Assembly (NCBI GenBank): GCA_036489885.1 | Contig: DASXEW010000001.1 | Coordinates: forward strand, 1-64,000 | Length of the DNA: 64,000 nucleotides | Source of the DNA: Candidatus Baltobacteraceae bacterium | GTDB taxonomy: Bacteria; Vulcanimicrobiota; Vulcanimicrobiia; Vulcanimicrobiales; Vulcanimicrobiaceae | Reading direction: 5' to 3' | Shown: positions 13,668-28,922 of the stretch, piece by piece | How the letters are laid out: every line of letters begins with the position of its first letter | Position numbering within the stretch: position 1 is the first letter of the stretch | Position numbers and translations under genes: made by a program | The notes under the pieces: model-generated | Seen by the model: only the letters and a program-made list of their open reading frames with translations | What the model was told of the DNA's origin: nothing | The model's database searches: none

Positions 13668-14126
13668 ATGGCTGGATCATTCAACCGCATCACGATCGTG
13701 GGAAACCTCGTACGCGATCCGGAGATTCGTTACATCAACAGTGGCGCTGCCGTCACGAAATTCACGCTGGCGGTTAATCGCCGCAGCAAGCAGCAAGAAG
13801 AGACCGACTTCATCGATTGCGTTGCATGGGATAAGCTCGCTGAAACCTGCAACACGTATCTGAAAAAGGGCATGAGCGTGCTGTGCGACGGACGTCTTTC
13901 GATTCGCTCGTACGAAACGAAGGAAGGCGAGAAGCGCAAAGCCGCCGAGGTCGTCGTCAACGTGATGCAAATGCTCGATCGTGCGAACAAATCGTACGGT
14001 GAGAACGGATCGTACTCAAACGGTAACGGCAACGGGCACGCGAATGGCAACGGTGAGAGCGTGAAACAATTCACGCCCCGCGGCGAAGGTTCTGAAGAAG
14101 AACTCGAAGACGAAATTCCGTTTTGA
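13668..14126 (+). CDS. ssb: Single-stranded DNA-binding protein
   Basis: SSB coats single-stranded DNA during replication and repair and recruits partners through its C-terminal tip. The 152 residues have an OB fold (1-105) with FNRITIVGNLVRDPEIRY, FTLAVNRRS, DFIDCVAWDKLAE and YLKKGMSVLCDGRLSIRSYE, a Gly/Asn-rich linker (about 112-135, GNGNGHANGNGE), and the acidic tip EEELEDEIPF. AGAAGGGAACGTAGC before the ATG gives a good ribosome-binding site. It is 121 bases after rpsF. Confidence 0.97.
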   Translation: MAGSFNRITIVGNLVRDPEIRYINSGAAVTKFTLAVNRRSKQQEETDFIDCVAWDKLAETCNTYLKKGMSVLCDGRLSIRSYETKEGEKRKAAEVVVNVMQMLDRANKSYGENGSYSNGNGNGHANGNGESVKQFTPRGEGSEEELEDEIPF

Positions 14127-14136
14127 CATTTTAGCT

Positions 14137-14280
14137 TGTCATCCCGAGCGTAGGCGCGCAGCGCCGAGCGTCAACTTTGTCATGGTGAGCGTAGCGCCCG
14201 CAGGGCGCGTAGTCGAACCACAGCGACAATGTGTCATCCCGAGCGTAGGCGCGTAGCGCCGTAGTCGAGGGACAGCGACA
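14137..14280 (+). repeat. Three degenerate copies of the TGTCATCCCGAGCG repeat
   Basis: Copies begin at 14137 (TGTCATCCCGAGCGTAGGCG), 14178 (TGTCATGGTGAGCGTAGCGC) and 14231 (TGTCATCCCGAGCGTAGGCG). The last ends GTAGTCGAGGGACAGCGACA and runs directly into the terminator at 14286. The last copy plus terminator closely matches 21710-21792. Confidence 0.8.
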
Positions 14281-14285
14281 ACCAC

Positions 14286-14313
14286 GAGGCCCGGTCGAAA
14301 GGCCGGGTCTTTT
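14286..14313 (+). terminator. Factor-independent terminator after ssb
   Basis: GGCCCGGTC (14288-14296), a GAAA tetraloop, and GGCCGGGTC (14301-14309) form nine pairs with two G-U pairs, followed by TTTT. It would end rpsF-ssb transcription. The same sequence recurs at 21766 and 29724. Confidence 0.75.
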
Positions 14314-16507
14314 AAACCACCGACGCTGGAGACAGCCTTACCGATACCAGTTCGCATGAAGCTGGTAGGTTTCGGCGCCGAATTCTCCCCGCGAGTTCGC
14401 GGGAGCGAGACGGCCAAAGATTCAAGTGAAACTGCATTGGAAGGTGCGGAATCGGGGTCGGATCCCAGTTTGCACGTCGATGGATGAGACGGCCATCAGC
14501 GTACCAGCGCAACTCGTTCGGTGACCACTCGATCGCGTAGGCGTGGAAGTCTTTTGTCGCATCAAAGCCGAGATCCACAAGGATCGGCGCTCCACGGTAT
14601 CCGTAATCGAATCGAGCACCATCATTTCCAGGATTATAATAGACGTTTGTAAGTATCTGTCGCGGAAACTTACCTACAAACTCAATATCAATTTCTTGTC
14701 GGGGCGAGTCGCGATGGAGAAACACTCCTGTGACCAAACCCAGGGCGCGCGAAGGTCTCAAGACCGCCTCAAAGCGGCCGTACAGAAAGCTCGCGCGCGA
14801 AGACAAAGCGGCAGAACTATATTTTCGAACGCCTAGGTCTTCCTGACGCAGAACGATCTGAGCGGGCGCGGAATTGCTTGTAATGAAATTTGATGGCCTA
14901 AACAGGGCGAGGTTCCCGGTAAATGTGTCGTCTCGTAACTTCCACAGTGAGGAATTCGTCCTCCGAAAATCATCGAAGAACTGGATTGATTTGATTTCCG
15001 GCGTAGGCTCGGGTTTTTCCGCTGTAGGTACGCCGCTCCAACGGGCTCGAGGCGTCGCGACCCAAGGCGCATCGTCACATCGCAGCTTACGGATATGCAC
15101 GAGGTCTTTGGTGTCGGATCCCTCGTCGTCGGCTGTCTCATGCAAAAGCCGTTGTCCTTCGTCCTCGCGGTAGGGATACGAACTAGGTGGCGGCACGCAA
15201 CGAAGAAACTCACAAACGAGTTTCCACATCCTCGGTGCGTCGGACGGGAGCATTAGGGTGCGCGCACCCCACGCTTGTGCGCACTCGTCAAGGCGATCGC
15301 CTGTCGTCGACAAAAGAGCGTCGAGAGGTTTGACGATCTCAGAACCCTCGATCGTCAGGATCAGACGACCATCGGGGTACAGACTGGCTAGCTGATCAAC
15401 GTTGTCCATGAGATTAGTAACGTTCACGTACGCGTCGAACACGCGACTAGAATCACGTTGCATGAGCCGCTGCATCTCGGTACGTGGAAGTCGATCAATG
15501 TCACTGCAACAACGGTATCCGAGCATCGAAAGCGCCATCGCAAGTGAGGACAATCCTGATTGGGGAGTTCCGAACGCGAAAATCGGAGCAAGCGTCGGCC
15601 GTCCGCGGAAAAGCCCCGGCGTTTCGCTGTTCAGGACCCCGGCCCGAGAGAGAGTCGGAAGAGCCGAATAGAAGTTCGTTGACCGCTCGTCACGCCGCTG
15701 GCCGATCACAGACCTCATTGTTGCATAGACTTTCAGATTCGCAAGCTGGTGGTTCATCCATAGATCGACGGGACCACGGACTGGGAGCCGGCGCAATAGT
15801 CTTTGTGCTCCGCTCTTCGAGAGTACATATCCCGACAGATTCCAGAGGCCTCGAAACGGCACGAACAAAGACGGGGAGACCCGAACCTTCTCAGCGCCGT
15901 AATCAACCTCGGTATAAGAGACATAGAGAAGATCGAAAAGGTGCGTTTGTCTATCAGCAGCGGGTAATTCGGCCCACGCTTGATCGACAACACGCGCAAA
16001 TCGCGGATGAAACCAGACATCGTCTTCCAGGACCAGCGCGTATTCGTATTGGCCGGAAGCGATATTCTTCCAGGCATTGATATGTGAGCAGGCTACCGCC
16101 ATTTCTTGCGGGCTCATGTTGATGCGCTCATCCAGATCAAGGCGCGCGGGCGATGCTAGTGGATGAGGATCCACAAACAGTTGCTCGCCGAGAGTGTACC
16201 TGCAGTCGACGAGGTCCTTTGGCCATTGGCCGTTGTTCTGGTGAGCATCCACGGCTGAAATTCGAGTAGAGCGCTGCGAAAGCGGCAAACCCGACGCGTC
16301 AAGTACGTGATCGAGTTCATCTACTATTCGCTGCCAGCGTCTGAGTTGGCGATCGAGGTTGATTACGAAAATGTGTTCTATCGCCGCACCATGGATAGAA
16401 TAATCTCGAAACGTTTTGCTTCGTTGGCTACCTAAAAGGCGGCGCGTCTGTAAGGCTATACTGTACGCTAATCCAATGGTTCTGCCCGGGAACCGGAACG
16501 GATTCAC
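14312..16507 (-). CDS. Three-domain fusion: GT25-like glycosyltransferase, sulfotransferase-like domain, GH16 glycoside hydrolase
   Basis: The 731-residue protein joins three recognisable parts. Residues 43-290 resemble family 25 glycosyltransferases: IEHIFVINLDRQLRRW, the CSHINAWK-type helix, and ALVLEDDV with the acidic EDD at 161-163. Residues 304-450 resemble sulfotransferases: PIFAFGTPQSGLSSLAMAL in the position of the PAPS-phosphate loop, LTIEGS, and the late MWKLVCEFLRCVPPPSSYPY; the usual R-S/T-G-T loop is altered to PQSGLSS, so catalysis is uncertain. Residues 507-728 are GH16, with active-site EIDIEF (605-610) complete and HLNLWPSRSRELAG near the end. It starts with GTG 16507 and has no signal peptide. 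Base composition is lower in GC than the flanks, suggesting transfer. A role in making or trimming a modified surface polysaccharide is inferred. Confidence 0.8.
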   Translation of the reverse strand: MNPFRFPGRTIGLAYSIALQTRRLLGSQRSKTFRDYSIHGAAIEHIFVINLDRQLRRWQRIVDELDHVLDASGLPLSQRSTRISAVDAHQNNGQWPKDLVDCRYTLGEQLFVDPHPLASPARLDLDERINMSPQEMAVACSHINAWKNIASGQYEYALVLEDDVWFHPRFARVVDQAWAELPAADRQTHLFDLLYVSYTEVDYGAEKVRVSPSLFVPFRGLWNLSGYVLSKSGAQRLLRRLPVRGPVDLWMNHQLANLKVYATMRSVIGQRRDERSTNFYSALPTLSRAGVLNSETPGLFRGRPTLAPIFAFGTPQSGLSSLAMALSMLGYRCCSDIDRLPRTEMQRLMQRDSSRVFDAYVNVTNLMDNVDQLASLYPDGRLILTIEGSEIVKPLDALLSTTGDRLDECAQAWGARTLMLPSDAPRMWKLVCEFLRCVPPPSSYPYREDEGQRLLHETADDEGSDTKDLVHIRKLRCDDAPWVATPRARWSGVPTAEKPEPTPEIKSIQFFDDFRRTNSSLWKLRDDTFTGNLALFRPSNFITSNSAPAQIVLRQEDLGVRKYSSAALSSRASFLYGRFEAVLRPSRALGLVTGVFLHRDSPRQEIDIEFVGKFPRQILTNVYYNPGNDGARFDYGYRGAPILVDLGFDATKDFHAYAIEWSPNELRWYADGRLIHRRANWDPTPIPHLPMQFHLNLWPSRSRELAGRIRRRNLPASCELVSVRLSPASVV

Positions 16508-16550
16508 GGGAAGCCAAAATGAGTCGTGCGGTTCAGCCGAGTTTTCAGTG

Positions 16551-17399
16551 TCATCGCACTATGCGCCGCCTATTTGACAGCCGCCAGTTTCTTGCGTCAG
16601 CGCGATAACTCAGTGGCCAAACGCTCGTAGCAAAATCATCCCAATTCGATATAACCATAAGCGCTAAGCTAGTCCTAGTCTCGTCACAAACGAGCGCCTG
16701 AGCGACAAGGCTCGCTGTGAGGTTACCTGGTCCGGTCGTAGATTGAATCTCAGGCAGGTTTCCGGGCGCCGCCGCCTCTGTAAGGAGCTGCGTTGATCGC
16801 TCAAGGGCACGAAGAATAACAGGATCCCGTGCCGGAGCGATCAGTGGGTTATTGTTGAAATAGAAGATCCACTTCGTGGAATCTGCCCCAGATCTGGTAA
16901 ATACGTCTCGATGTACCATCGTGTCAGACAAGACGTCGTAACAAAGCGGATGAAGTTTCAGACGTCCGTCCCTGAAGAGTACGTCTAAACATCGACCATT
17001 GTAAACGTCGTCGGCATCAACATAACATCCCCCACGCAAACCGATGTAACACAAGCGAAAGTAGTCAGACCGCATTGCGGGATGGTAGCAGCCAGCGAAT
17101 GCTTTAAGATGCCGAGGCTCGAGATTATCTGCGACGAAACGCTGTGCCGACGAATCATCAAAATACAAAAGTTTAAACCCTGCATCACGAAGTGGATGCC
17201 ACGACTCCATACAGCGTTGGACGTCGTTCGGGATGTCGAGCGGATCGTGCCAAAACTGAATGATTGTCCTGGGAACTACCATGCTTCTGGACCGATCGTC
17301 CGCTCGCGAGTCTCCTTCGCCTTGTACGAGATTGCGTACAACACTCGAACGAAAGCCGTCGTCTTCTGAGCGCCTAATCGCCGAAGACTCATGATTCAT
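16551..17399 (-). CDS. Och1/mannosyltransferase-like glycosyltransferase (DXD sugar-binding family)
   Basis: The core VPRTIIQFWHDPLDIP, ESWHPLRDAGFKLLYFDD, HPAMRSDYFRLCYIGLRGGCYVDADD is the Gly_transf_sug pattern, with DADD as the metal- and nucleotide-sugar-binding acidic motif. Residues 190-280 are less conserved. ATG 17399 gives 282 residues; ATG 17279 (MVVPRTIIQFWH) would start at the usual family N-terminus and drop 40 hydrophilic residues, and may be the true start. It lies upstream of, and in the same direction as, the three-domain enzyme, 43 bases apart, so both probably act on the same glycan. Confidence 0.8.
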   Translation of the reverse strand: MNHESSAIRRSEDDGFRSSVVRNLVQGEGDSRADDRSRSMVVPRTIIQFWHDPLDIPNDVQRCMESWHPLRDAGFKLLYFDDSSAQRFVADNLEPRHLKAFAGCYHPAMRSDYFRLCYIGLRGGCYVDADDVYNGRCLDVLFRDGRLKLHPLCYDVLSDTMVHRDVFTRSGADSTKWIFYFNNNPLIAPARDPVILRALERSTQLLTEAAAPGNLPEIQSTTGPGNLTASLVAQALVCDETRTSLALMVISNWDDFATSVWPLSYRADARNWRLSNRRRIVR

Positions 17400-17430
17400 C
17401 TGATTCGAGTGCGCCCTACGCTTCTTTCGT

Positions 17431-17784
17431 TCATTTGTGGATCTTTACCAGCTCGGTCCATTTAGTTATCGATCCGTCGCTATAGCGGTAAATCCAGGTG
17501 AATGATTTAACCGCGCCATCGCTTATGCGGCGAAGCGTTTCTGTCGGAACGCGCTGCCACTGCGATGTAACTTGCTCGGTCCACTTTGGCATATCGGTTG
17601 CGATCGTTTCGCCAGACTCTAAAGCCTCTTCAAGCGTCTCGGATACCAATGCCGGCCCAGGCGCTCCGTTCACCGCGTTCTGATTCGCCACTTCGGTAGT
17701 GGACAAAAACTTGGGCGCAAGCGCAGCAACAGGCGTGGCCATCACCCCGAGTCCCACGCGACGCAAGAGATCATGTCGGTTCAT
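17431..17784 (-). CDS. Small protein with Tat-like signal, unknown function
   Basis: The 117 residues start MNRHDLLRRVGLGVMATPVAALAP, a twin-arginine-like signal (RR at 8-9), followed by a mature part with no family I recognise; it contains PKWTEQVTSQWQRVPTETL and ends YRYSDGSITKWTELVKIHK, a repeated KWTE motif. It sits in the low-GC island between a carbamoyltransferase remnant and glycosyltransferases, so it may belong to a glycan or secondary-metabolite locus. No function is proposed. Confidence 0.5.
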   Translation of the reverse strand: MNRHDLLRRVGLGVMATPVAALAPKFLSTTEVANQNAVNGAPGPALVSETLEEALESGETIATDMPKWTEQVTSQWQRVPTETLRRISDGAVKSFTWIYRYSDGSITKWTELVKIHK

Positions 17785-17794
17785 AATTTCACTC

Positions 17795-17929
17795 TCACAA
17801 GCTCAGCTGTGACATCCTCAAGGGCGTCCGTCTTCGAACGGTAGTTTCTCGAAGATACGAAACTTCGGGCGCAACATACGGAGTCATTTTGTTGGATTCA
17901 GATACAAGGCCTCCAGTTGGTCCGCGCAT
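17795..17929 (-). CDS. Possible small peptide with YxxP motif
   Basis: An open frame ends with TGA 10 bases before the ATG of the Tat-like small protein. From ATG 17929 it encodes 44 residues, from ATG 17887 only 30, beginning MTPYVAPEVSYLRETT. The YxxPxV pattern resembles leader regions of lasso and related peptides that are bound by PqqD-like recognition domains, but no such modifying enzymes are nearby and no Shine-Dalgarno sequence precedes either ATG. It may equally be non-coding sequence of a decayed island. Confidence 0.25.
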   Translation of the reverse strand: MRGPTGGLVSESNKMTPYVAPEVSYLRETTVRRRTPLRMSQLSL

Positions 17930-18026
17930 GTCGCCGCGGTTTGATTTCGAACGCAAGCCGGAGTGTCGACAGTTCTGGTTCTCTTGAAACCACCGGATTT
18001 GGCTCACGTCAAAACGCGGAATCCAT

Positions 18027-18995
18027 TCACGACTCGACACCTAGTGAATTCGGCATCCTTAGGTATGTTTGATAATTCTCCGACGCTTTCAAGAGATAGG
18101 TCCGCCCCTCGATCACAAACCCATCCAAATCGTGCGTCACGGAATATTGCGAAAGGTCATCAACCTGGTTTATAAATCCCCTTCCCTTGAAATTCAGAGA
18201 AGTATTACATAGGACGCCGTATCCGGTTCGTGCTTTGAATGCGATAAGCAGGTCGTACAGATTTCGATTGGTCGCAGACGACACTGTCTGAATTCGAGCA
18301 GTACCGTTCACGTGGGTAACAGCTGCCAGCGCGTCTGTACTTACACGATGCGTAAAAAGCATGAATGGACTTGCTTGATCGCAGCCAAACCATTTGGCAG
18401 CGTCTTCTTCTAAGCAAACAGGAGCAATCGGGCGAAATTGCTCGCGTTGCTTAATTTCATTTAGCCGCACTCTGGTGCTTTCTTGAAAGGGTGCAGCAAG
18501 AATCGATCGGTTGCCGAGCGCACGCGGGCCAATTTCGTATTTCCCGCTCACCCATCCAATAATGAGATCGTTAGCCAACATGTCGGCGATCAATTCATAG
18601 CTCGTCTCGTAGAAATTGTATTGCGCTAAATCGAAAGAGCCGGACGTGATGAAACTCAGGCCAGAGTAAACGTTCCAGTCAATTTTCGCATTTCCAGTAA
18701 AATGCAATTGGGCGTCGATGGCCGTCCCGATAGCTGAACCGGAATCGTTGGCAACCGGAGGCACGAAGACCTCAGGAAAAAGACCGGTCTCTTTCCACTT
18801 GGTGTTCCAATCACAATTCAGACCGCATCCACCTGCGATAACCAGAGGAAGTCCTTTCTTCAGCTTCGATTTCGCGAAGTGGTAGAATACATCAAATATC
18901 TTGTCGCTAAAAATACCTGCGAAGTTGCGAAATGCCGGATCGTCCAGCACCCACGCCATCCTCGCCTCAATGGAATGGCACTGGAGTTTTTCTAA
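18027..18995 (-). pseudogene. Carbamoyltransferase (NodU/CmcH/TobZ family), 5' half missing
   Basis: The frame carries the second half of the Kae1-like domain (LVIAGGCGLNCDWNTK, FVPPVANDSGSAIGTAI) and the YrdC-like C-terminal part (GWVSGKYEIGPRALGNRSILAAP, RPIAPVCLEED, LCNTSLNFKGRGFINQV). Full-length enzymes have about 550 residues; only some 310-320 remain here. The frame stays open a few codons upstream of ATG 18959 and then meets TGA at 19005-19007, inside the end of the neighbouring regulator gene. The first 230 or so residues, with the metal-binding His motif, are absent, so the carbamoylation activity should be lost. Family members O-carbamoylate sugars or antibiotics. Confidence 0.8.
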
Positions 18996-20929
18996 CGCGA
19001 CGAGTCACGTAGGCGATAACCGATACCGGAAATTGTTTCGATGAGGTTTGCGTGTTCGCCGAGCTTCCTGCGAAGGGAGCGCACAACTACGTCGACGACG
19101 TTGCTGGCAACATCGGCACTTTCTCCCCAAACGTCGCTAAGAATATCTTCGCGGTTCACCGCATTGCCCGCGTGCTGTAGTAGATAGTGCAGCGTATCGA
19201 ATTCGCGCCGCGTCAACGATGTGCGCCGTGAGCCGACGACTAGTTCGCGAGCGCCAAAATCGAGGAGACTACTCGTTGCGATGCCGAGTTCGGCAGCGAC
19301 GAGTTTTGCAAACCAGCCGTCGACGGATTCTGGCCCGAAGTCGAGCATCGCGGTGAGATAGACCTGATCAGCGATGATCGTTGTGCACGAGTCCAGGACT
19401 ACAAAGCCGAGCTGCGTTGCTGTGGCAGCATACGGTGCGATGTCGCGGAGCGTAAGATAGACGCGCCGCAAGTGTGGACGGTGCGCCATATAGGCGCGCT
19501 TGATGTCGAGCCAGCATGCTGCCTGAACGGCGCTTGGTGCTTCGCCTTCAGTGCTCGACAACCAGCGACGTAGGAAGAGAACGCGCTCGCCCGGCGCGAC
19601 CGGGTTGGCGGCCAAATGCGCACTCCACTGCGCGAGGACAGGGTCGTCGACGGTCGGTGCGATGCTGAGGCTCGCGGCTTCGAACAGGATATAGTAACCG
19701 GCGACGGCGCCTTCGCGTTCACGCGCGACACTGAATCCCTGCGGTCCTTGGTGCCACCATGCCGCCGTTAGATGCGCCGCGTCGCAGCCGTCGTGCCGCT
19801 CGGCGATCGCTAGGATCGCCGCTTCATCGACGGCGCGAGCGGGCTCGACCGCGAAACGCTGCGCGCCGGACGGGAAAAATGCTTCACGCACGACCGGATT
19901 CTCGAGTAGATATAAGAGATCGGCGGTAGATCGCCACAGCTCCGCCGACGGAGCCGTTCGCAGTTCTCGAATCAAGTGGCCCCAAGACGCGCGGCGGAGG
20001 TTGAGGTAGCGTTTCGGATCCGAGGAGCGCAGTTCGCCCGCGATCGCGTCGCGCACGCTATCGTGCAATTGCAAACCATCGCGCGAGAGCCGCATCAGCG
20101 GCAGAGACCGAAGTCGTTCATAGACGTCGCTGGGTGCGACATCGGGGAGCATAGCGCCGAGTAGCGGCGCAGTGACGGTTCGCAGGAGTGCAGCTGCCTC
20201 AACGGCTCGCCGCGTGATCGGGTCGCGAATCTCTGTTAAATGCCGGCGCGCAAGCTCGCCGACAATCCGGTGAAAGGCCAGTTCTTCGAGTTCGGGATCG
20301 TCAACGCGTTGCAGCGTGATGGCAGCGAGCGTTAGGGCAAGCGGATGGCCGCGCGCGATTCGATTGACGCGCGCAGCTTGCGCCGCTTCGATCCCCGCGG
20401 CCGTCAGAAGCGACACGGCATCGCTATCCGAAAGCGGAGCGAGTTCGAGCGTTTGGAATGCGCCACGCCACGGCATCTGCAACCATGCCGAAAGCGGCGG
20501 ATCGCGTCCGCCGAAGACGACGTGTACGTTCGGCGGCAAAGCGGTGACGAACGACAGGCGTAGCCATGTGTCGAGTAAACGCAGCGCATCGATGTCGTCG
20601 AGAACTAGTGCCACACTTCCGAGCTCGCCGAGACGCTCCGACGCATCCTCGAGGGTGGCGATATCGCGCCGCACCGCGAGGCTGAGCTTATGTAGGAGAG
20701 CAGCCTCAGTCGGTTCGACGAGCCGACCGTCGATGCGCACGACCGCTGCGCCGGCAGAGCGCCGGTGCTCCGCGAACGTATCGAGAAGCCGCGATTTTCC
20801 CATCCCACCGATTCCGGTCACAAACGTGATCGAAGGTATAGGTGCCGTCGTAAGGCGTTCGAGCCGTGCCAGCTCATCGTCGCGCCCGACGAACGGAAGT
20901 TCGTCGTAGCGCGACCCGATCGCGATCAC
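18992..20929 (-). CDS. STAND-type ATPase regulator with C-terminal OmpR-like winged helix
   Basis: The 645-residue protein has a P-loop ATPase near the N-terminus (FVTGIGGMGKSRLL, VALVLDDIDAL, FGGRDPP), a helical arm (about 180-340), a middle region with a GNAT-like look (GAVAGYYILFEA, about 400-540), and a C-terminal Trans_Reg_C domain (LTRREFDTLHYLLQHAG, NREDILSDVWG, NVVDVVVRSLRRKL, ETISGIGYRL). Regulators of the AfsR/SARP type carry the winged helix at the N-terminus; here the order is reversed. GTG 20929 is chosen because GTGA overlaps the tautomerase stop; an upstream in-frame ATG lies inside that gene. It probably senses a ligand or stress and controls transcription; targets are unknown. 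Confidence 0.8.
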   Translation of the reverse strand: MIAIGSRYDELPFVGRDDELARLERLTTAPIPSITFVTGIGGMGKSRLLDTFAEHRRSAGAAVVRIDGRLVEPTEAALLHKLSLAVRRDIATLEDASERLGELGSVALVLDDIDALRLLDTWLRLSFVTALPPNVHVVFGGRDPPLSAWLQMPWRGAFQTLELAPLSDSDAVSLLTAAGIEAAQAARVNRIARGHPLALTLAAITLQRVDDPELEELAFHRIVGELARRHLTEIRDPITRRAVEAAALLRTVTAPLLGAMLPDVAPSDVYERLRSLPLMRLSRDGLQLHDSVRDAIAGELRSSDPKRYLNLRRASWGHLIRELRTAPSAELWRSTADLLYLLENPVVREAFFPSGAQRFAVEPARAVDEAAILAIAERHDGCDAAHLTAAWWHQGPQGFSVAREREGAVAGYYILFEAASLSIAPTVDDPVLAQWSAHLAANPVAPGERVLFLRRWLSSTEGEAPSAVQAACWLDIKRAYMAHRPHLRRVYLTLRDIAPYAATATQLGFVVLDSCTTIIADQVYLTAMLDFGPESVDGWFAKLVAAELGIATSSLLDFGARELVVGSRRTSLTRREFDTLHYLLQHAGNAVNREDILSDVWGESADVASNVVDVVVRSLRRKLGEHANLIETISGIGYRLRDSSR

Positions 20930-21162
20930 CCTACGGAGGCGGGCGCTTTTCCGGCGGCAAGGGCCTTTACGGCATCGGTCGTCAAAACTTGCCCGCCGAT
21001 TCCCCAATCGCCGCTTTCGATTTCGTCGACTTTCACCCAGGTTACGCCGCGCATGTTTTCGCCCTCGATCGTCACCATCGCATCGGTCAAACGGGAAATC
21101 ATCAGTCGCTTTTGCTCGGGCGAGAACACGCCCTTAACTACACTCACCTGAATCAGTGGCAT
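20926..21162 (-). CDS. 4-oxalocrotonate tautomerase-family enzyme
   Basis: The 78 residues begin MPLIQVSVVKGVFSPEQKRLMISRLTDAM, leaving the catalytic Pro as residue 1 after Met removal, and continue GVTWVKVDEIESGDWGIGG, the family's central hairpin. Such small hexameric enzymes tautomerise enols or dehalogenate small acids. AAAGGAG precedes the ATG by 9 bases, one of the clearest ribosome-binding sites in the window. The stop overlaps the start of the STAND regulator, so both are made together, an unusual pairing. Confidence 0.85.
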   Translation of the reverse strand: MPLIQVSVVKGVFSPEQKRLMISRLTDAMVTIEGENMRGVTWVKVDEIESGDWGIGGQVLTTDAVKALAAGKAPASVG

Positions 21163-26037: not shown

Positions 26038-27165
26038 ATGGCTACGTTTGCCGATTTCGGCTTGCGCTCACAACTCGTGCGCGCGCTTCAAAAACTTCAA
26101 TTTACACAACCAACCCCCGTCCAAGTCGCCTCCATTCCGCCGGCCATGCTCGGCCGCGATGTGATGGCGAGCGCAATGACCGGCAGCGGGAAGACGGCCG
26201 CATTCGGTCTGCCGCTCCTGAACTCACACCTCGATCCCGCTCGCAAGGGGCAGCGTTCGCTCGTCGTCGTACCGACCCGCGAGCTCGCAGCGCAGATCGC
26301 CGCGCACCTCAAAGCTCTCTCCGGAGATTCCGGAATTCGCATCGTCGCGATCTACGGTGGCGTTGGTTTTGGCGGTCAGAGACACGAGCTCAGACGTGGC
26401 GCGGATATCATCGTCGCAACGCCCGGCCGTCTTCTCGATCATATGACGCAGAAAACCGTCTCGCTTGAGGGCGTCTCGTGTCTCGTTCTCGACGAGGCCG
26501 ACCGGATGCTCGACATGGGTTTTCTTCCGGTCGTCCGCCGGATCGTCAAGGCGCTGCCGCGTAAGCGTCAGACGCTGTTCTTTTCAGCGACGATTCCGCC
26601 TGAGATCATGAACCTTACAAAAGAGATGCTGACCGACCCCGTTCGGGTCGATCTCTCGCCGCCGGCAAAAACGGCGAGCGGCGTGACGCAAACGATCTAC
26701 GCGATCGACCAAAACCAAAAGACGGATCTGCTGGTCGAGCTGCTCAAAGACAACGCGATCTTCAGTGCGCTCGCATTCACGCGCACGAAGGCTCGCGCGA
26801 ATCGCTTAGCCGACGCGCTCGCAAAACACAAGATTCCCACGGAGCGCATCCACGGAAATCGATCGCAAGGTCAACGCACCCGTGCACTCGCCGACTTCAA
26901 GAGCGGGAAATATCGCGTGCTGGTGGCGACCGATATTGCCGCGCGAGGCATCGACATCGAAGATCTCGACCTCGTCGTCAACTACGACGTGCCACTTGCA
27001 CCGGACGACTACGTGCACCGTATTGGACGCACGGCACGAGCCCAGGCTACGGGTGATGCCGTGACGTTCGTTTCACGCGAAGAGCGACCGCAGCTCGCTC
27101 AAATCGAACGTGCCTTGGGCAAAAAGCTCGACCGCGCCGAAGTCCCGGTTTTGCGCCGCCGCTAG
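26038..27165 (+). CDS. DEAD-box RNA helicase (RhlE-like)
   Basis: The 375-residue helicase unwinds RNA with ATP. All core motifs are present: Q-motif FTQPTPVQ, motif I AMTGSGKT, Ia PTRELAAQ, GG, motif II DEADRMLDMGF, motif III SAT, motif IV LAFTRTK, motif V ATDIAARGID, motif VI HRIGRTARA. It stops right after the helicase core (KKLDRAEVPVLRRR), lacking the basic C-terminal extension often found in RhlE or CsdA, so RNA targeting may depend on partners. ATG 26038 begins MATFADFGL. The 5' region carries a strong hairpin. Confidence 0.95.
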   Translation: MATFADFGLRSQLVRALQKLQFTQPTPVQVASIPPAMLGRDVMASAMTGSGKTAAFGLPLLNSHLDPARKGQRSLVVVPTRELAAQIAAHLKALSGDSGIRIVAIYGGVGFGGQRHELRRGADIIVATPGRLLDHMTQKTVSLEGVSCLVLDEADRMLDMGFLPVVRRIVKALPRKRQTLFFSATIPPEIMNLTKEMLTDPVRVDLSPPAKTASGVTQTIYAIDQNQKTDLLVELLKDNAIFSALAFTRTKARANRLADALAKHKIPTERIHGNRSQGQRTRALADFKSGKYRVLVATDIAARGIDIEDLDLVVNYDVPLAPDDYVHRIGRTARAQATGDAVTFVSREERPQLAQIERALGKKLDRAEVPVLRRR

Positions 27166-27209
27166 ACCGAAAATGAGGAGCCGCGCGCCGCGGCTTTGAA
27201 ATCCCCGTG

Positions 27210-28922
27210 ATGCCGTCGTGGTTCGGGCGCGGCCTCATGTTCGTGATCGTTGTCGCGTCGGTTCTCTTTGTGTGTGGCTCCGGGTTTATCGGAGAAGCGC
27301 CGGGCTACTACGGCAGTCTCCCCGTGGCTGCGCTTTCGAACGACAGCTTTCGCCTCGGTGACGTTCCGAAAGGTACGAGCCTTGCCGAAGCGGGGCTGCA
27401 TCCCGGCGAGATGGTTCGCTTCGCCCGTTCCGACCTCGAGACACGCGCGGCCTTACTTACGGCCGTGGTGGGCTCGCGGCTGACGCTGATAGCCGGCGGA
27501 CGGGAAGTCACGCTTGTCGCGCACGCCGGTCCGAAGCAATTTCTTCCGCTCGTTCTCATTGCCGTAAAGCTGGCGTATTTGCTCGTGGCTGGGCTGCTCG
27601 TTCTGCGGCGTTGGGAAACTGCGTCCGTTCGCGCGCTCGTCTTTTTCCTGACGGGTTTTGGACTGGCTCTTGGGCTACCGAACGTAAATCCGATCGTGTC
27701 GTCGGAATTTTCGTTCGCGTTATTCGACGTCGGGGCCATGCTGTTGCTCGTCTGCGCCGGCGCCGCCGCCGCGGAATTCTCCGCACATCTCTCGGACTCG
27801 CCGACCCTCGCGGAACGCCGTCTGGCTTCCGCAGCGGTCGTGACAGCGGGCATGGGTGTCGTCGCGGCCGTGGCTGTACAATTGTTCTTCGCGGTTCAGG
27901 GCGTCGCTGCGCGCGTGCTGATCAGTGTACTTTTTGCGTTGCCGTTTTTGCTCGCGATCGCGACGCTGGTCGTGGGCTTCATTCAAGCGCGTGCCGCCGA
28001 TCGCAGCCGGCGGCTTTGGGTGCTGCTCATCATCGGCGTCGGGATTTCGGGGCCGGCACTCGACTTTATCGTAATTGCGTTCGCTGGATACACTGCGCGC
28101 GTCGATCAGTTCGCGCTCCTCACCGTCGCGATCATCCCCGTCGGCCTTGCGTACGTCATCCTGCGCCATCGCCTGATCGACGTCGGCTTCGTCCTCAATC
28201 AGGCCGCGGTATATGCGGGCGTCTCGATTGTTATCGTCGGCATTCTCGTCATCGTTGAGACGCTGCTTTCCAACTATGTTGCGAGCGCGAGCCATGTCAC
28301 GAACACCGCGGTTCAACTCGGCGTCGCGCTTGCTCTCGGGTTTTCCATCAACGCGATTCACAAGCGAGTCGAGCGTTTCGTCGATCGCGTGTTCTTTCGC
28401 GTGCGTTATGCAGCACAAGCCGCCTTACACGCGTTCGCACTCGACGCGCCGTACGTCACCGATGTGTCGCTGCTGCTGGAACGCTGCGTGCAAAGCGTTC
28501 ACCAGTACGCGCGTGCGACGCGCGCGGGGACCTGGGTTGCGGGCCCGCCCGGGGAGTACACAATGGCCGCCGGAGATTTCCCGGCAGGCGGGCACGTCGA
28601 TTTCAACGATCCGGCGGCGGTCGCCATGCGCGCGCGGCATGTGGTCGTCGATCTGCAGAAGTCGGGGTCGAGCATTCCCGGCGTGCTGGCATTCCCGATG
28701 GTGAGCGGAGGAGAGCTGCTCGGGATCCTGGTTTGCGATGCTAAGGCGGATCAGGAGAGCTACGCGCCCGACGAGCGGGCCTCTCTGGAAGAGGTGGCGA
28801 GCGCCGTGGCGCACGCGCTCGGCGCGTTGCGCATCCAAGACCTCGAGCGGGAGGTTGCCGCCCTGCGCGCCATAGCGGCCGGGCCACGAAAATGGGCTGT
28901 CGGCGGAGGGGCCGAGTCGTGA
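27210..28922 (+). CDS. PDZ-like/7TM/GAF membrane protein
   Basis: The product has about 570 residues. An N-terminal membrane helix is followed by a PDZ-like stretch (SFRLGDVPKGTSLAEAGLHPGEMVRF, about 45-75), seven or so membrane helices (about 110-385) ending in the serpentine-receptor signature LAYVILRHRLIDVGFVLNQAAVY, and a C-terminal GAF-like domain (about 410-545, FPMVSGGELLGILVCDAK) plus a short coiled coil. The same membrane part usually feeds histidine kinases or LuxR-type regulators, but no output domain follows here. GTG 27207 and ATG 27210 are adjacent starts. It ends just before the zinc-ribbon/infA pair. Confidence 0.7.
   Translation: MPSWFGRGLMFVIVVASVLFVCGSGFIGEAPGYYGSLPVAALSNDSFRLGDVPKGTSLAEAGLHPGEMVRFARSDLETRAALLTAVVGSRLTLIAGGREVTLVAHAGPKQFLPLVLIAVKLAYLLVAGLLVLRRWETASVRALVFFLTGFGLALGLPNVNPIVSSEFSFALFDVGAMLLLVCAGAAAAEFSAHLSDSPTLAERRLASAAVVTAGMGVVAAVAVQLFFAVQGVAARVLISVLFALPFLLAIATLVVGFIQARAADRSRRLWVLLIIGVGISGPALDFIVIAFAGYTARVDQFALLTVAIIPVGLAYVILRHRLIDVGFVLNQAAVYAGVSIVIVGILVIVETLLSNYVASASHVTNTAVQLGVALALGFSINAIHKRVERFVDRVFFRVRYAAQAALHAFALDAPYVTDVSLLLERCVQSVHQYARATRAGTWVAGPPGEYTMAAGDFPAGGHVDFNDPAAVAMRARHVVVDLQKSGSSIPGVLAFPMVSGGELLGILVCDAKADQESYAPDERASLEEVASAVAHALGALRIQDLEREVAALRAIAAGPRKWAVGGGAES

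What the first reader, a model, noticed from the sequence alone, without database searches (positions are those of the whole stretch)
14312..16507. Three-domain enzyme: glycosyltransferase, sulfotransferase-like, GH16 hydrolase
A single 731-residue frame carries a GT25-like domain with EDD, a domain with the sulfotransferase PAPS-loop position and characteristic WxxLCxFL ending, and a GH16 domain with intact EIDIEF. I know of no described protein combining these. It would let one polypeptide build, possibly sulfate, and cut or transglycosylate a polysaccharide. It lacks a signal peptide although GH16 enzymes are usually secreted, and the sulfotransferase loop is altered (PQSGLSS), so one domain may be a binding relic.
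Basis: partly seen in the sequence, partly recalled or inferred. Interest (0 to 1): 0.75.

Follow-up and report, generated by a model that had tools for sequence, protein, structure and literature searches.

The report
Mobile glycan cassette with triple-fusion enzyme
The gene is a real, ancient fusion of a sugar-adding domain, a worn-out sulfate-transfer fold and a sugar-chain-cutting domain; with one or two partner genes it travels as a small cassette between very different bacteria, often next to anti-phage defence genes, and its job is unknown.

Summary
One intact 731-aa ORF (14312-16507, -) carries GT25, a sulfotransferase-fold domain and GH16. It is no assembly chimera: full-length homologues (36-54% identity) occur in at least 80 further genomes (154 candidate places), nine plasmids, four E. 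coli chromosomes and a P2-like prophage, under 19 phylum labels. GT25 EDD and GH16 EIDIE residues are invariant (71/71). The middle domain has the sulfotransferase fold but has lost the PAPS-loop Arg/Lys (70/71), the 3'-phosphate Arg/Ser and ~50 residues, so sulfation is unlikely.

In 82 of 83 loci with room, a GT32-type glycosyltransferase gene (window 16551-17399) lies directly upstream, often overlapping by 4 nt, and co-evolves with the fusion (r = 0.90). About half add a NodU/TobZ-type carbamoyltransferase; in this window only its C-terminal half survives (18027-18959). The window copy sits on a ~4.8-kb low-GC island. Flanking genes are rich in defence genes (12+ proteins against 2 of 139 controls). 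The cassette is absent from PADLOC, and I found no paper on it.

Likely mechanism: two glycosyltransferases build a glycan that GH16 trims or transfers, with optional carbamoylation. Biological role unproven; phage or mobile-element conflict is the leading hypothesis.

The parts
14312..16507 (-). GT25 - degenerate sulfotransferase - GH16 fusion protein, 731 aa
15758..16375 (-). GT25 domain, residues 45-250
   Evidence: Pfam PF01755 E 2.5e-14; AF2 model
16019..16027 (-). GT25 EDD motif, residues 161-163
   Evidence: invariant in 71/71
15098..15601 (-). degenerate sulfotransferase-fold domain, residues 303-470
   Evidence: Sulfotransfer_4 in 59/59 members; fold matches SgdX2, Cpz8, 3-OST
15545..15571 (-). 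altered PAPS-loop position GTPQSGLSS, residues 313-321
   Evidence: Arg/Lys at residue 316 in only 1 of 71; solved relatives read GRTG/PRTG
14321..14995 (-). GH16 domain, residues 505-729, lichenase-like
   Evidence: Pfam PF00722 E 5.2e-30; Z 27.9 to 3i4i
14681..14695 (-). GH16 catalytic strand EIDIE, residues 605-609
   Evidence: E605, D607, E609 invariant in 71/71
16551..17399 (-). GT32-type (Gly_transf_sug) glycosyltransferase, 282 aa; near-obligate upstream partner
   Evidence: Pfam PF04488; upstream neighbour in 82 of 83 loci; E. coli copies annotated GT32
17010..17018 (-). DxD motif (residues 128-130) of the GT32-type enzyme
   Evidence: D128 and D130 conserved in at least 97% of 81
17431..17784 (-). 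orphan 117-aa ORF inside the island; not part of the conserved cassette
   Evidence: no family; no hit in plasmids or 59 relatives; absent from the 87 other loci
18027..18959 (-). C-terminal half of a NodU/TobZ-type carbamoyltransferase (YrdC-like domain plus the end of the Kae1-like domain); truncated remnant
   Evidence: 82% identity to residues 234-541 of the 549-aa L036 homologue, residues 1-233 missing, no other copy in the genome; Pfam
14200..18960 (.). low-GC island (approximate limits) between ssb (13668-14126) and a STAND/winged-helix gene (18992-21007)
   Evidence: GC 0.49-0.57 in 1-kb windows against about 0.60 outside

Best explanation
The ORF encodes a genuine, evolutionarily stable multidomain enzyme of a small horizontally transferred glycan-making cassette: GT32-type glycosyltransferase + [GT25 - degenerate sulfotransferase fold - GH16] fusion, with an optional NodU/TobZ-type carbamoyltransferase. 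Shown: the architecture, its conservation, the operon, the catalytic residues, the spread and the island. Inferred: the protein stays inside the cell (no signal peptide); the GT32-type and GT25 domains add sugars in turn to an unknown acceptor; the GH16 domain, of the lichenase/XTH type with a regular EXDXE strand, cuts the growing beta-glycan or moves it to another acceptor; the sulfotransferase-fold domain no longer sulfates and serves as a spacer or ligand-binding scaffold; where present, the carbamoyltransferase caps a hydroxyl. In this genome the carbamoyl step is most likely lost because that gene is truncated. The biological role is open; because the cassette travels with defence genes and on mobile elements, a role in conflict between mobile elements, phages and hosts is the leading hypothesis.
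For: Domains. Full-length homologues across 19 phylum labels, plasmids, E. coli integrative element, P2-like prophage contig. GT25 EDD and GH16 EIDIE invariant in 71/71 (36). GT32 gene directly upstream, same strand, in 82/82 pairs, 4-nt overlap the commonest spacing; pairwise identities of the two proteins correlate, r = 0.90. Carbamoyltransferase present only beside the cassette: 9/9 sampled genomes with an adjacent copy have exactly one, 31/31 without have none. AF2 pLDDT 86.9; GH16 part Z 27.9 to lichenase; middle part Z 10.4 to sulfotransferase SgdX2. Island GC (58).
Against: No activity, acceptor, donor or product is known. The GT32-type gene has no match among PDB sequences and only a borderline Pfam hit (23.1 bits against a cut-off of 23). 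Intracellular location rests on the absence of a signal sequence. A GH16 hydrolase in the cytoplasm is unusual, so export by an unrecognised route is not excluded.
Confidence: 0.6

Rival explanations
1. Anti-phage or inter-element conflict system: the cassette makes a modified intracellular oligosaccharide or glycoconjugate (or modifies a phage or host macromolecule) that blocks infection. This is a more specific version of the best explanation.
For: Flanking genes are rich in defence families: at E 1e-40 the 139 nearest neighbours include PDC-S06 (3), GajB (2), GajA/Old, HmaC, LmuB, BilD, CBASS cyclase, bSEFIR, PDC-S54, type II methyltransferases, against 2 hits (RtcR-like, RT) in 139 random genes of some of the same genomes. 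Shedu nearby in Aliarcobacter, ABC-three-component system in E. coli, GmrSD_N protein in Chloroflexi L036 and DUF262 in Rhizobium and Citrobacter. In L098 it lies on the outer side of the portal gene of a P2-like prophage, the side where P2-like phages of E. coli carry a defence hotspot (PMC9122126). The spread to gram-positive hosts argues against a host-specific role.
Against: Association with islands shows only mobile cargo; the control was chromosome backbone, not other islands. Absent from PADLOC. No sensor, nuclease or obvious effector. In L098 gpA and integrase were not found (101, 102), so only one side of the hotspot is seen.
Confidence: 0.4
2. Cell-surface or membrane glycan modification cargo: the cassette alters a glycolipid, LPS or polysaccharide (serotype-like conversion), with carbamoyl decoration.
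For: GT25 is classically an LPS-modifying family; carbamoyl groups occur on Nod factors and LPS cores (established knowledge); basic N-terminal segment, mean net charge +5.3 in the first 32 residues; carried by plasmids, an integrative element and a prophage.
Against: No flippase, polymerase or transporter recurs next to it. Hosts include Streptomyces, Micrococcaceae, Chloroflexota and a CPR bacterium, which share no LPS core. The GH16 domain would be on the cytoplasmic side.
Confidence: 0.3
3. Active three-step enzyme including PAPS-dependent sulfation, as the first reader suggested as possible.
For: The sulfotransferase fold is retained; a P-loop-like GxxxSGxSS remains in most members.
Against: Loop Arg/Lys replaced in 70/71 (80); solved relatives read GRTG/PRTG there and TxRDxxxW(Y/L)xS at the 3'-phosphate site, where this family is variable and ~50 residues are deleted; in the Rhizobium and Sphingobium copies the loop is gone altogether.
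Confidence: 0.04
4. Assembly chimera or chance fusion of separate genes.
For: None found.
Against: At least 80 independent copies of the same fusion, many in finished or isolate genomes and plasmids.
Confidence: 0.005

Closest known systems
GH16 lichenases / ExoK / XTH-type transglycosylases (EXDXE branch, GH16_21 neighbourhood)
   Same: Fold (Z 27.9), EIDIE catalytic strand, profile hits to BglS and ExoK models
   Different: Fused behind GT25 and a sulfotransferase fold, no signal peptide, far below the NCBIfam equivalog cut-offs
GT25 (LPS glycosyltransferases, procollagen galactosyltransferases COLGALT)
   Same: Pfam GT25 with invariant EDD; weak sequence match to COLGALT1
   Different: Fused, in a mobile cassette, no LPS gene cluster around it
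Sulfotransfer_4 family: SgdX2, Cpz8, schistosome oxamniquine-activating sulfotransferases
   Same: Fold and the W..LC.fL...pP...(F/Y)P ending
   Different: PAPS-loop Arg, 3'-phosphate Arg/Ser and a ~50-residue block are lost
NodU/TobZ/GdmN carbamoyltransferases
   Same: Cassette carbamoyltransferase has Carbam_trans_N and _C; NodU model E 3e-77 for the L036 copy
   Different: Not nodulation-linked; 260 bits against a NodU cut-off of 1000; in this window only the C-terminal half remains
P2-like prophage defence hotspot and defence-island cargo (PMC9122126)
   Same: Location next to the portal gene in one prophage; defence-gene neighbours elsewhere
   Different: None of the three genes matches a PADLOC model; no anti-phage test exists

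Membership tests
GT25 | Pfam Glyco_transf_25 above the curated cut-off | tested here: met
   54.1 bits against 24
GT25 | EDD acidic motif | tested here: met
   residues 161-163, 71/71
GT25 | UDP-sugar transferase activity | not testable with these tools
   needs enzyme assay
GH16 | Pfam Glyco_hydro_16 and beta-jelly-roll fold | tested here: met
   104.6 bits; Z 27.9, rmsd 1.8 over 207 residues to 3i4i
GH16 | catalytic EXDXE (regular strand) or EXDXXE | tested here: met
   EIDIE, E605/D607/E609 in 71/71; motif definition PMC6827312
GH16_21 (licheninase subfamily) | membership by subfamily network or equivalog model | tested here: inconclusive
   best relatives are lichenases, but 108 bits against the BglS cut-off of 300
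PAPS sulfotransferase | sulfotransferase fold | tested here: met
   Sulfotransfer_4 in 59/59; the top 29 structural matches are sulfotransferases, Z 8.2-10.4
PAPS sulfotransferase | 5'-phosphosulfate loop with Arg/Lys | tested here: not met
   Arg/Lys in 1 of 71; solved relatives GRTG/PRTG
PAPS sulfotransferase | 3'-phosphate Arg...Ser and the following acceptor region | tested here: not met
   positions 386-396 variable, ~50 residues absent relative to 5tiz, 9kf1 and 4mua
GT32 / Gly_transf_sug (upstream gene) | Pfam PF04488 above the cut-off, DxD motif | tested here: met
   23.1 bits against 23; D128 and D130 conserved in at least 97% of 81
NodU/TobZ carbamoyltransferase (window gene 18027-18959) | complete Kae1-like N domain plus YrdC-like C domain | tested here: not met
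   residues 1-233 missing in this window; complete (about 540 aa) in most other loci that carry it
Known anti-phage defence system | match to a PADLOC model | tested here: not met
   none of the three genes matches at E up to 1
Anti-phage defence system (candidate) | enrichment among defence genes | tested here: met
   at least 12 distinct defence proteins in 139 neighbours against 2 in 139 controls; control not matched for islands
Anti-phage defence system (candidate) | protection in a plaque assay | not testable with these tools
   experiment

The most novel reading that the evidence does not exclude
The cassette is an undescribed, phylum-crossing class of anti-phage or anti-mobile-element system that works by carbohydrate chemistry: two glycosyltransferases and an intracellular transglycosidase, with optional carbamoylation, make or modify a glycan in the cytoplasm that blocks infection.
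Probability: 0.3. Interest if true: 0.88.

Novelty: new variant of a known kind. Interest (0 to 1): 0.66.

Why it matters
A glycosyltransferase and a likely transglycosidase held in one chain by a worn-out sulfotransferase fold, kept intact across 19 phylum-level groups and nearly always paired with the same second glycosyltransferase, points to a strongly selected reaction that nobody has assigned. The genes are annotated in databases only as 'family 16 glycosylhydrolase', 'glycosyltransferase' or 'hypothetical protein', so the system is hidden. Its place on IncC and IncF plasmids, an integrative element, a P2-like prophage and beside Gabija, Lamassu, Shedu and GmrSD-type genes makes an anti-phage role directly testable with one cloning experiment.

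Tried and rejected
Assembly chimera: rejected. Unique to this genome: rejected; but no full-length homologue in 97 relatives of the same phylum, where only the GH16 part matches, so the gene was probably acquired. Phage genomes: no hit in INPHARED; one P2-like prophage contig in IMG/VR, the other 42 IMG/VR loci match only the GT25 part. The 117-aa ORF as a conserved peptide precursor: rejected, orphan. Carbamoyltransferase elsewhere in genomes lacking an adjacent copy: none. gpA and integrase in the prophage record: not found, uninformative because the record may be a fragment. Amphipathic N-terminal helix: hydrophobic moment only weakly above shuffles (mean z 0.48), so membrane association is not claimed. 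The full-chain structural second look was filled by GH16 rows; the middle domain was therefore folded alone; the GT25 part was not folded alone. An empty insertion site in a relative: not found; G009 has the STAND gene in another context. Paper searches found no description of the fusion or cassette in the open-access library.

Full report
The observation. The ORF at 14312-16507 (minus, GTG, 731 aa) is intact. Pfam gives Glyco_transf_25 (residues 45-250, E 2.5e-14), Sulfotransfer_4 (309-386, E 1.7e-4 on the whole protein; 2.1e-6, above the curated cut-off, on the domain alone) and Glyco_hydro_16 (555-703, E 5.2e-30).

Not a chimera. In the window's own phylum no full-length homologue was found in 97 genomes; matches there cover only the GH16 part. 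A plasmid search found nine records with full-length homologues (37-49% identity): Rhizorhabdus, Citrobacter (IncC), Klebsiella (IncF), four Aliarcobacter, Rhizobium, Sphingobium. A scan of GTDB species genomes found 154 places encoding relatives, of which 80 were kept; nearly all cover almost the whole query (a few are cut by contig ends). Carriers include Pseudomonadota, Bacteroidota, Chloroflexota, Actinomycetota, Acidobacteriota, Planctomycetota, Nitrospirota, Omnitrophota, Campylobacterota and a Beckwithbacteria (CPR) chromosome. In the tree, 19 phylum labels need 29 changes where 18 is the minimum, and the isolates Cupriavidus respiraculi and Haliea alexandrii (different orders) have nearly identical copies. 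MAG mis-binning may explain some other cross-phylum near-identities, such as Fusobacteriaceae with Aliarcobacter and Methylomirabilota with Burkholderiaceae. In E. coli, 4 of 5,426 complete genomes carry it, all on chromosomes; in the two inspected it lies beside a type IV secretion cluster and an ABC-three-component system.

Catalytic residues. In 71 aligned homologues the GT25 EDD (161-163) and the GH16 residues E605, D607 and E609 are invariant. EIDIE is the regular-strand EXDXE form of GH16 (PMC6827312), the form found in licheninases and XTH-type transglycosylases. The AF2 model (pLDDT 86.9) places residues about 505-729 on lichenases with Z 27.9, rmsd 1.8 over 207 residues.

The middle domain. 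Folded alone (pLDDT 88.7), its 29 best structural matches are sulfotransferases (SgdX2 Z 10.4, Cpz8 9.9, schistosome enzymes, heparan 3-OST); adenylate kinases follow just below at Z 8.0 and less, so the fold match alone is moderate, but it agrees with the sequence evidence: all 59 members hit Sulfotransfer_4. Solved relatives read GxGRTG or GxPRTG at the PAPS loop and T(V/I)RDxxxW(Y/L)xS at the 3'-phosphate site, followed by a block of roughly 50-60 residues. This family reads mostly G-x-x-(G/N/D)-(S/T)-G-(L/Q/H)-(S/T)-S, with Arg/Lys at that position in 1 of 71, has no conserved Arg or Ser at the second site and lacks the block; the Rhizobium and Sphingobium copies lack the loop entirely. 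I conclude that the domain is most likely a non-sulfating relic kept as scaffold or ligand site.

The operon. A GT32-type glycosyltransferase gene (window 16551-17399) is the immediate upstream, same-strand neighbour in 82 of the 83 loci with enough upstream sequence (the exception is L084), often with a 4-nt overlap. Pairwise identities of the two proteins correlate with r = 0.90 over 81 loci. A NodU/TobZ-type carbamoyltransferase (about 540 aa) lies beside the pair in 46 of 87 loci, downstream, upstream or divergent. Sampled genomes lacking the adjacent copy have none elsewhere (31/31), and those with it have one (9/9). No other gene family recurs as a cassette partner; tyrosine recombinases (13 loci) and OLD-like ATPases (8 loci) are the next commonest neighbours (the two labels are my reading of the representative sequences).

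The window copy. It lies on an island of about 4.8 kb with GC 0.49-0.57 against about 0.60 outside, between ssb and a STAND/winged-helix gene. Its carbamoyltransferase is a remnant: 82% identity to residues 234-541 of the Chloroflexi homologue, the first 233 residues missing, no second copy in the genome. [quoted passage not shown] A 117-aa ORF between it and the glycosyltransferase is an orphan.

Neighbourhood. Among the 139 genes nearest to the cassettes, PADLOC models matched at E 1e-40 include PDC-S06 (3 genes), GajB (2), GajA/Old, HmaC, LmuB, BilD, a CBASS cyclase, bSEFIR, PDC-S54 and type II methyltransferases: 52 models, which I count as at least 12 distinct proteins. In 139 random genes from 15 of the same genomes 4 models matched, in 2 proteins (RtcR-like, RT) (examples in 77). 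Plasmid and E. coli neighbours add Shedu, an Abi protein, DUF262 and ABC-three-component genes. In the IMG/VR contig L098 the cassette follows terminase, portal and an apparent Dam-like methylase gene of a P2-like prophage; P2-like phages of E. coli carry a defence hotspot between gpA and the portal gene (PMC9122126). The gpA side was not seen. None of the three genes matches a PADLOC model.

Mechanism. Shown: architecture, conserved catalytic residues, operon, loss of sulfotransferase residues, mobility. Inferred: cytoplasmic location; successive action of two glycosyltransferases; trimming or transglycosylation by GH16; optional carbamoylation. The mixed gram-negative and gram-positive host list argues against an LPS-specific acceptor. 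The role in phage or element conflict rests on genomic association only, and the control was not matched for mobile islands.

Verdict. The larger finding is a widespread mobile glycan cassette without an assigned function.

Noticed in passing
window 18027-18959 (-): Carbamoyltransferase gene is truncated at its 5' end (first 233 residues missing), marking the upstream edge of the island.
   Followed up: yes
window 17431-17784 (-): Orphan 117-aa ORF with a twin-arginine-like start (MNRHDLLRRVGLG), no homologue in plasmids or 59 relatives.
   Followed up: partly
window 14137-14166 and 14232-14261: Two copies of a 30-nt repeat (TGTCATCCCGAGCGTAGGCGCG...) at the ssb-side edge of the island, with a second 22-nt repeat pair at 14208/14260; possibly a dispersed intergenic repeat.
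   Followed up: no
window 18992-21007 (-): STAND-type ATPase with C-terminal winged-helix DNA-binding domain next to the island; only one close homologue among 59 relatives (66%, G009, in another context).
   Followed up: partly
window 27000-28500: Strong AT skew (-0.28 to -0.34) over about 1.5 kb within ORF 27207-28922.
   Followed up: no
L098:4847-13845: Complete three-gene cassette beside terminase, portal and a Dam-like methylase gene of a P2-like prophage; nearest cassettes are in Sphingomonas.
   Followed up: yes
L014:11131-11977: In Aliarcobacter butzleri P1200 the GT32 partner gene is split into two ORFs (apparent frameshift) while the fusion gene is intact.
   Followed up: no
L012:12001-14223: In pSWIT02 (CP000701) the fusion gene is annotated only in its C-terminal half, as Swit_4988, although the frame is open over its whole length.
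   Followed up: no
L141:13406-23012: E. coli YF-1 copy lies in an element that also carries UbiD/UbiX, ArdC and glyoxalase III HchA genes.
   Followed up: no
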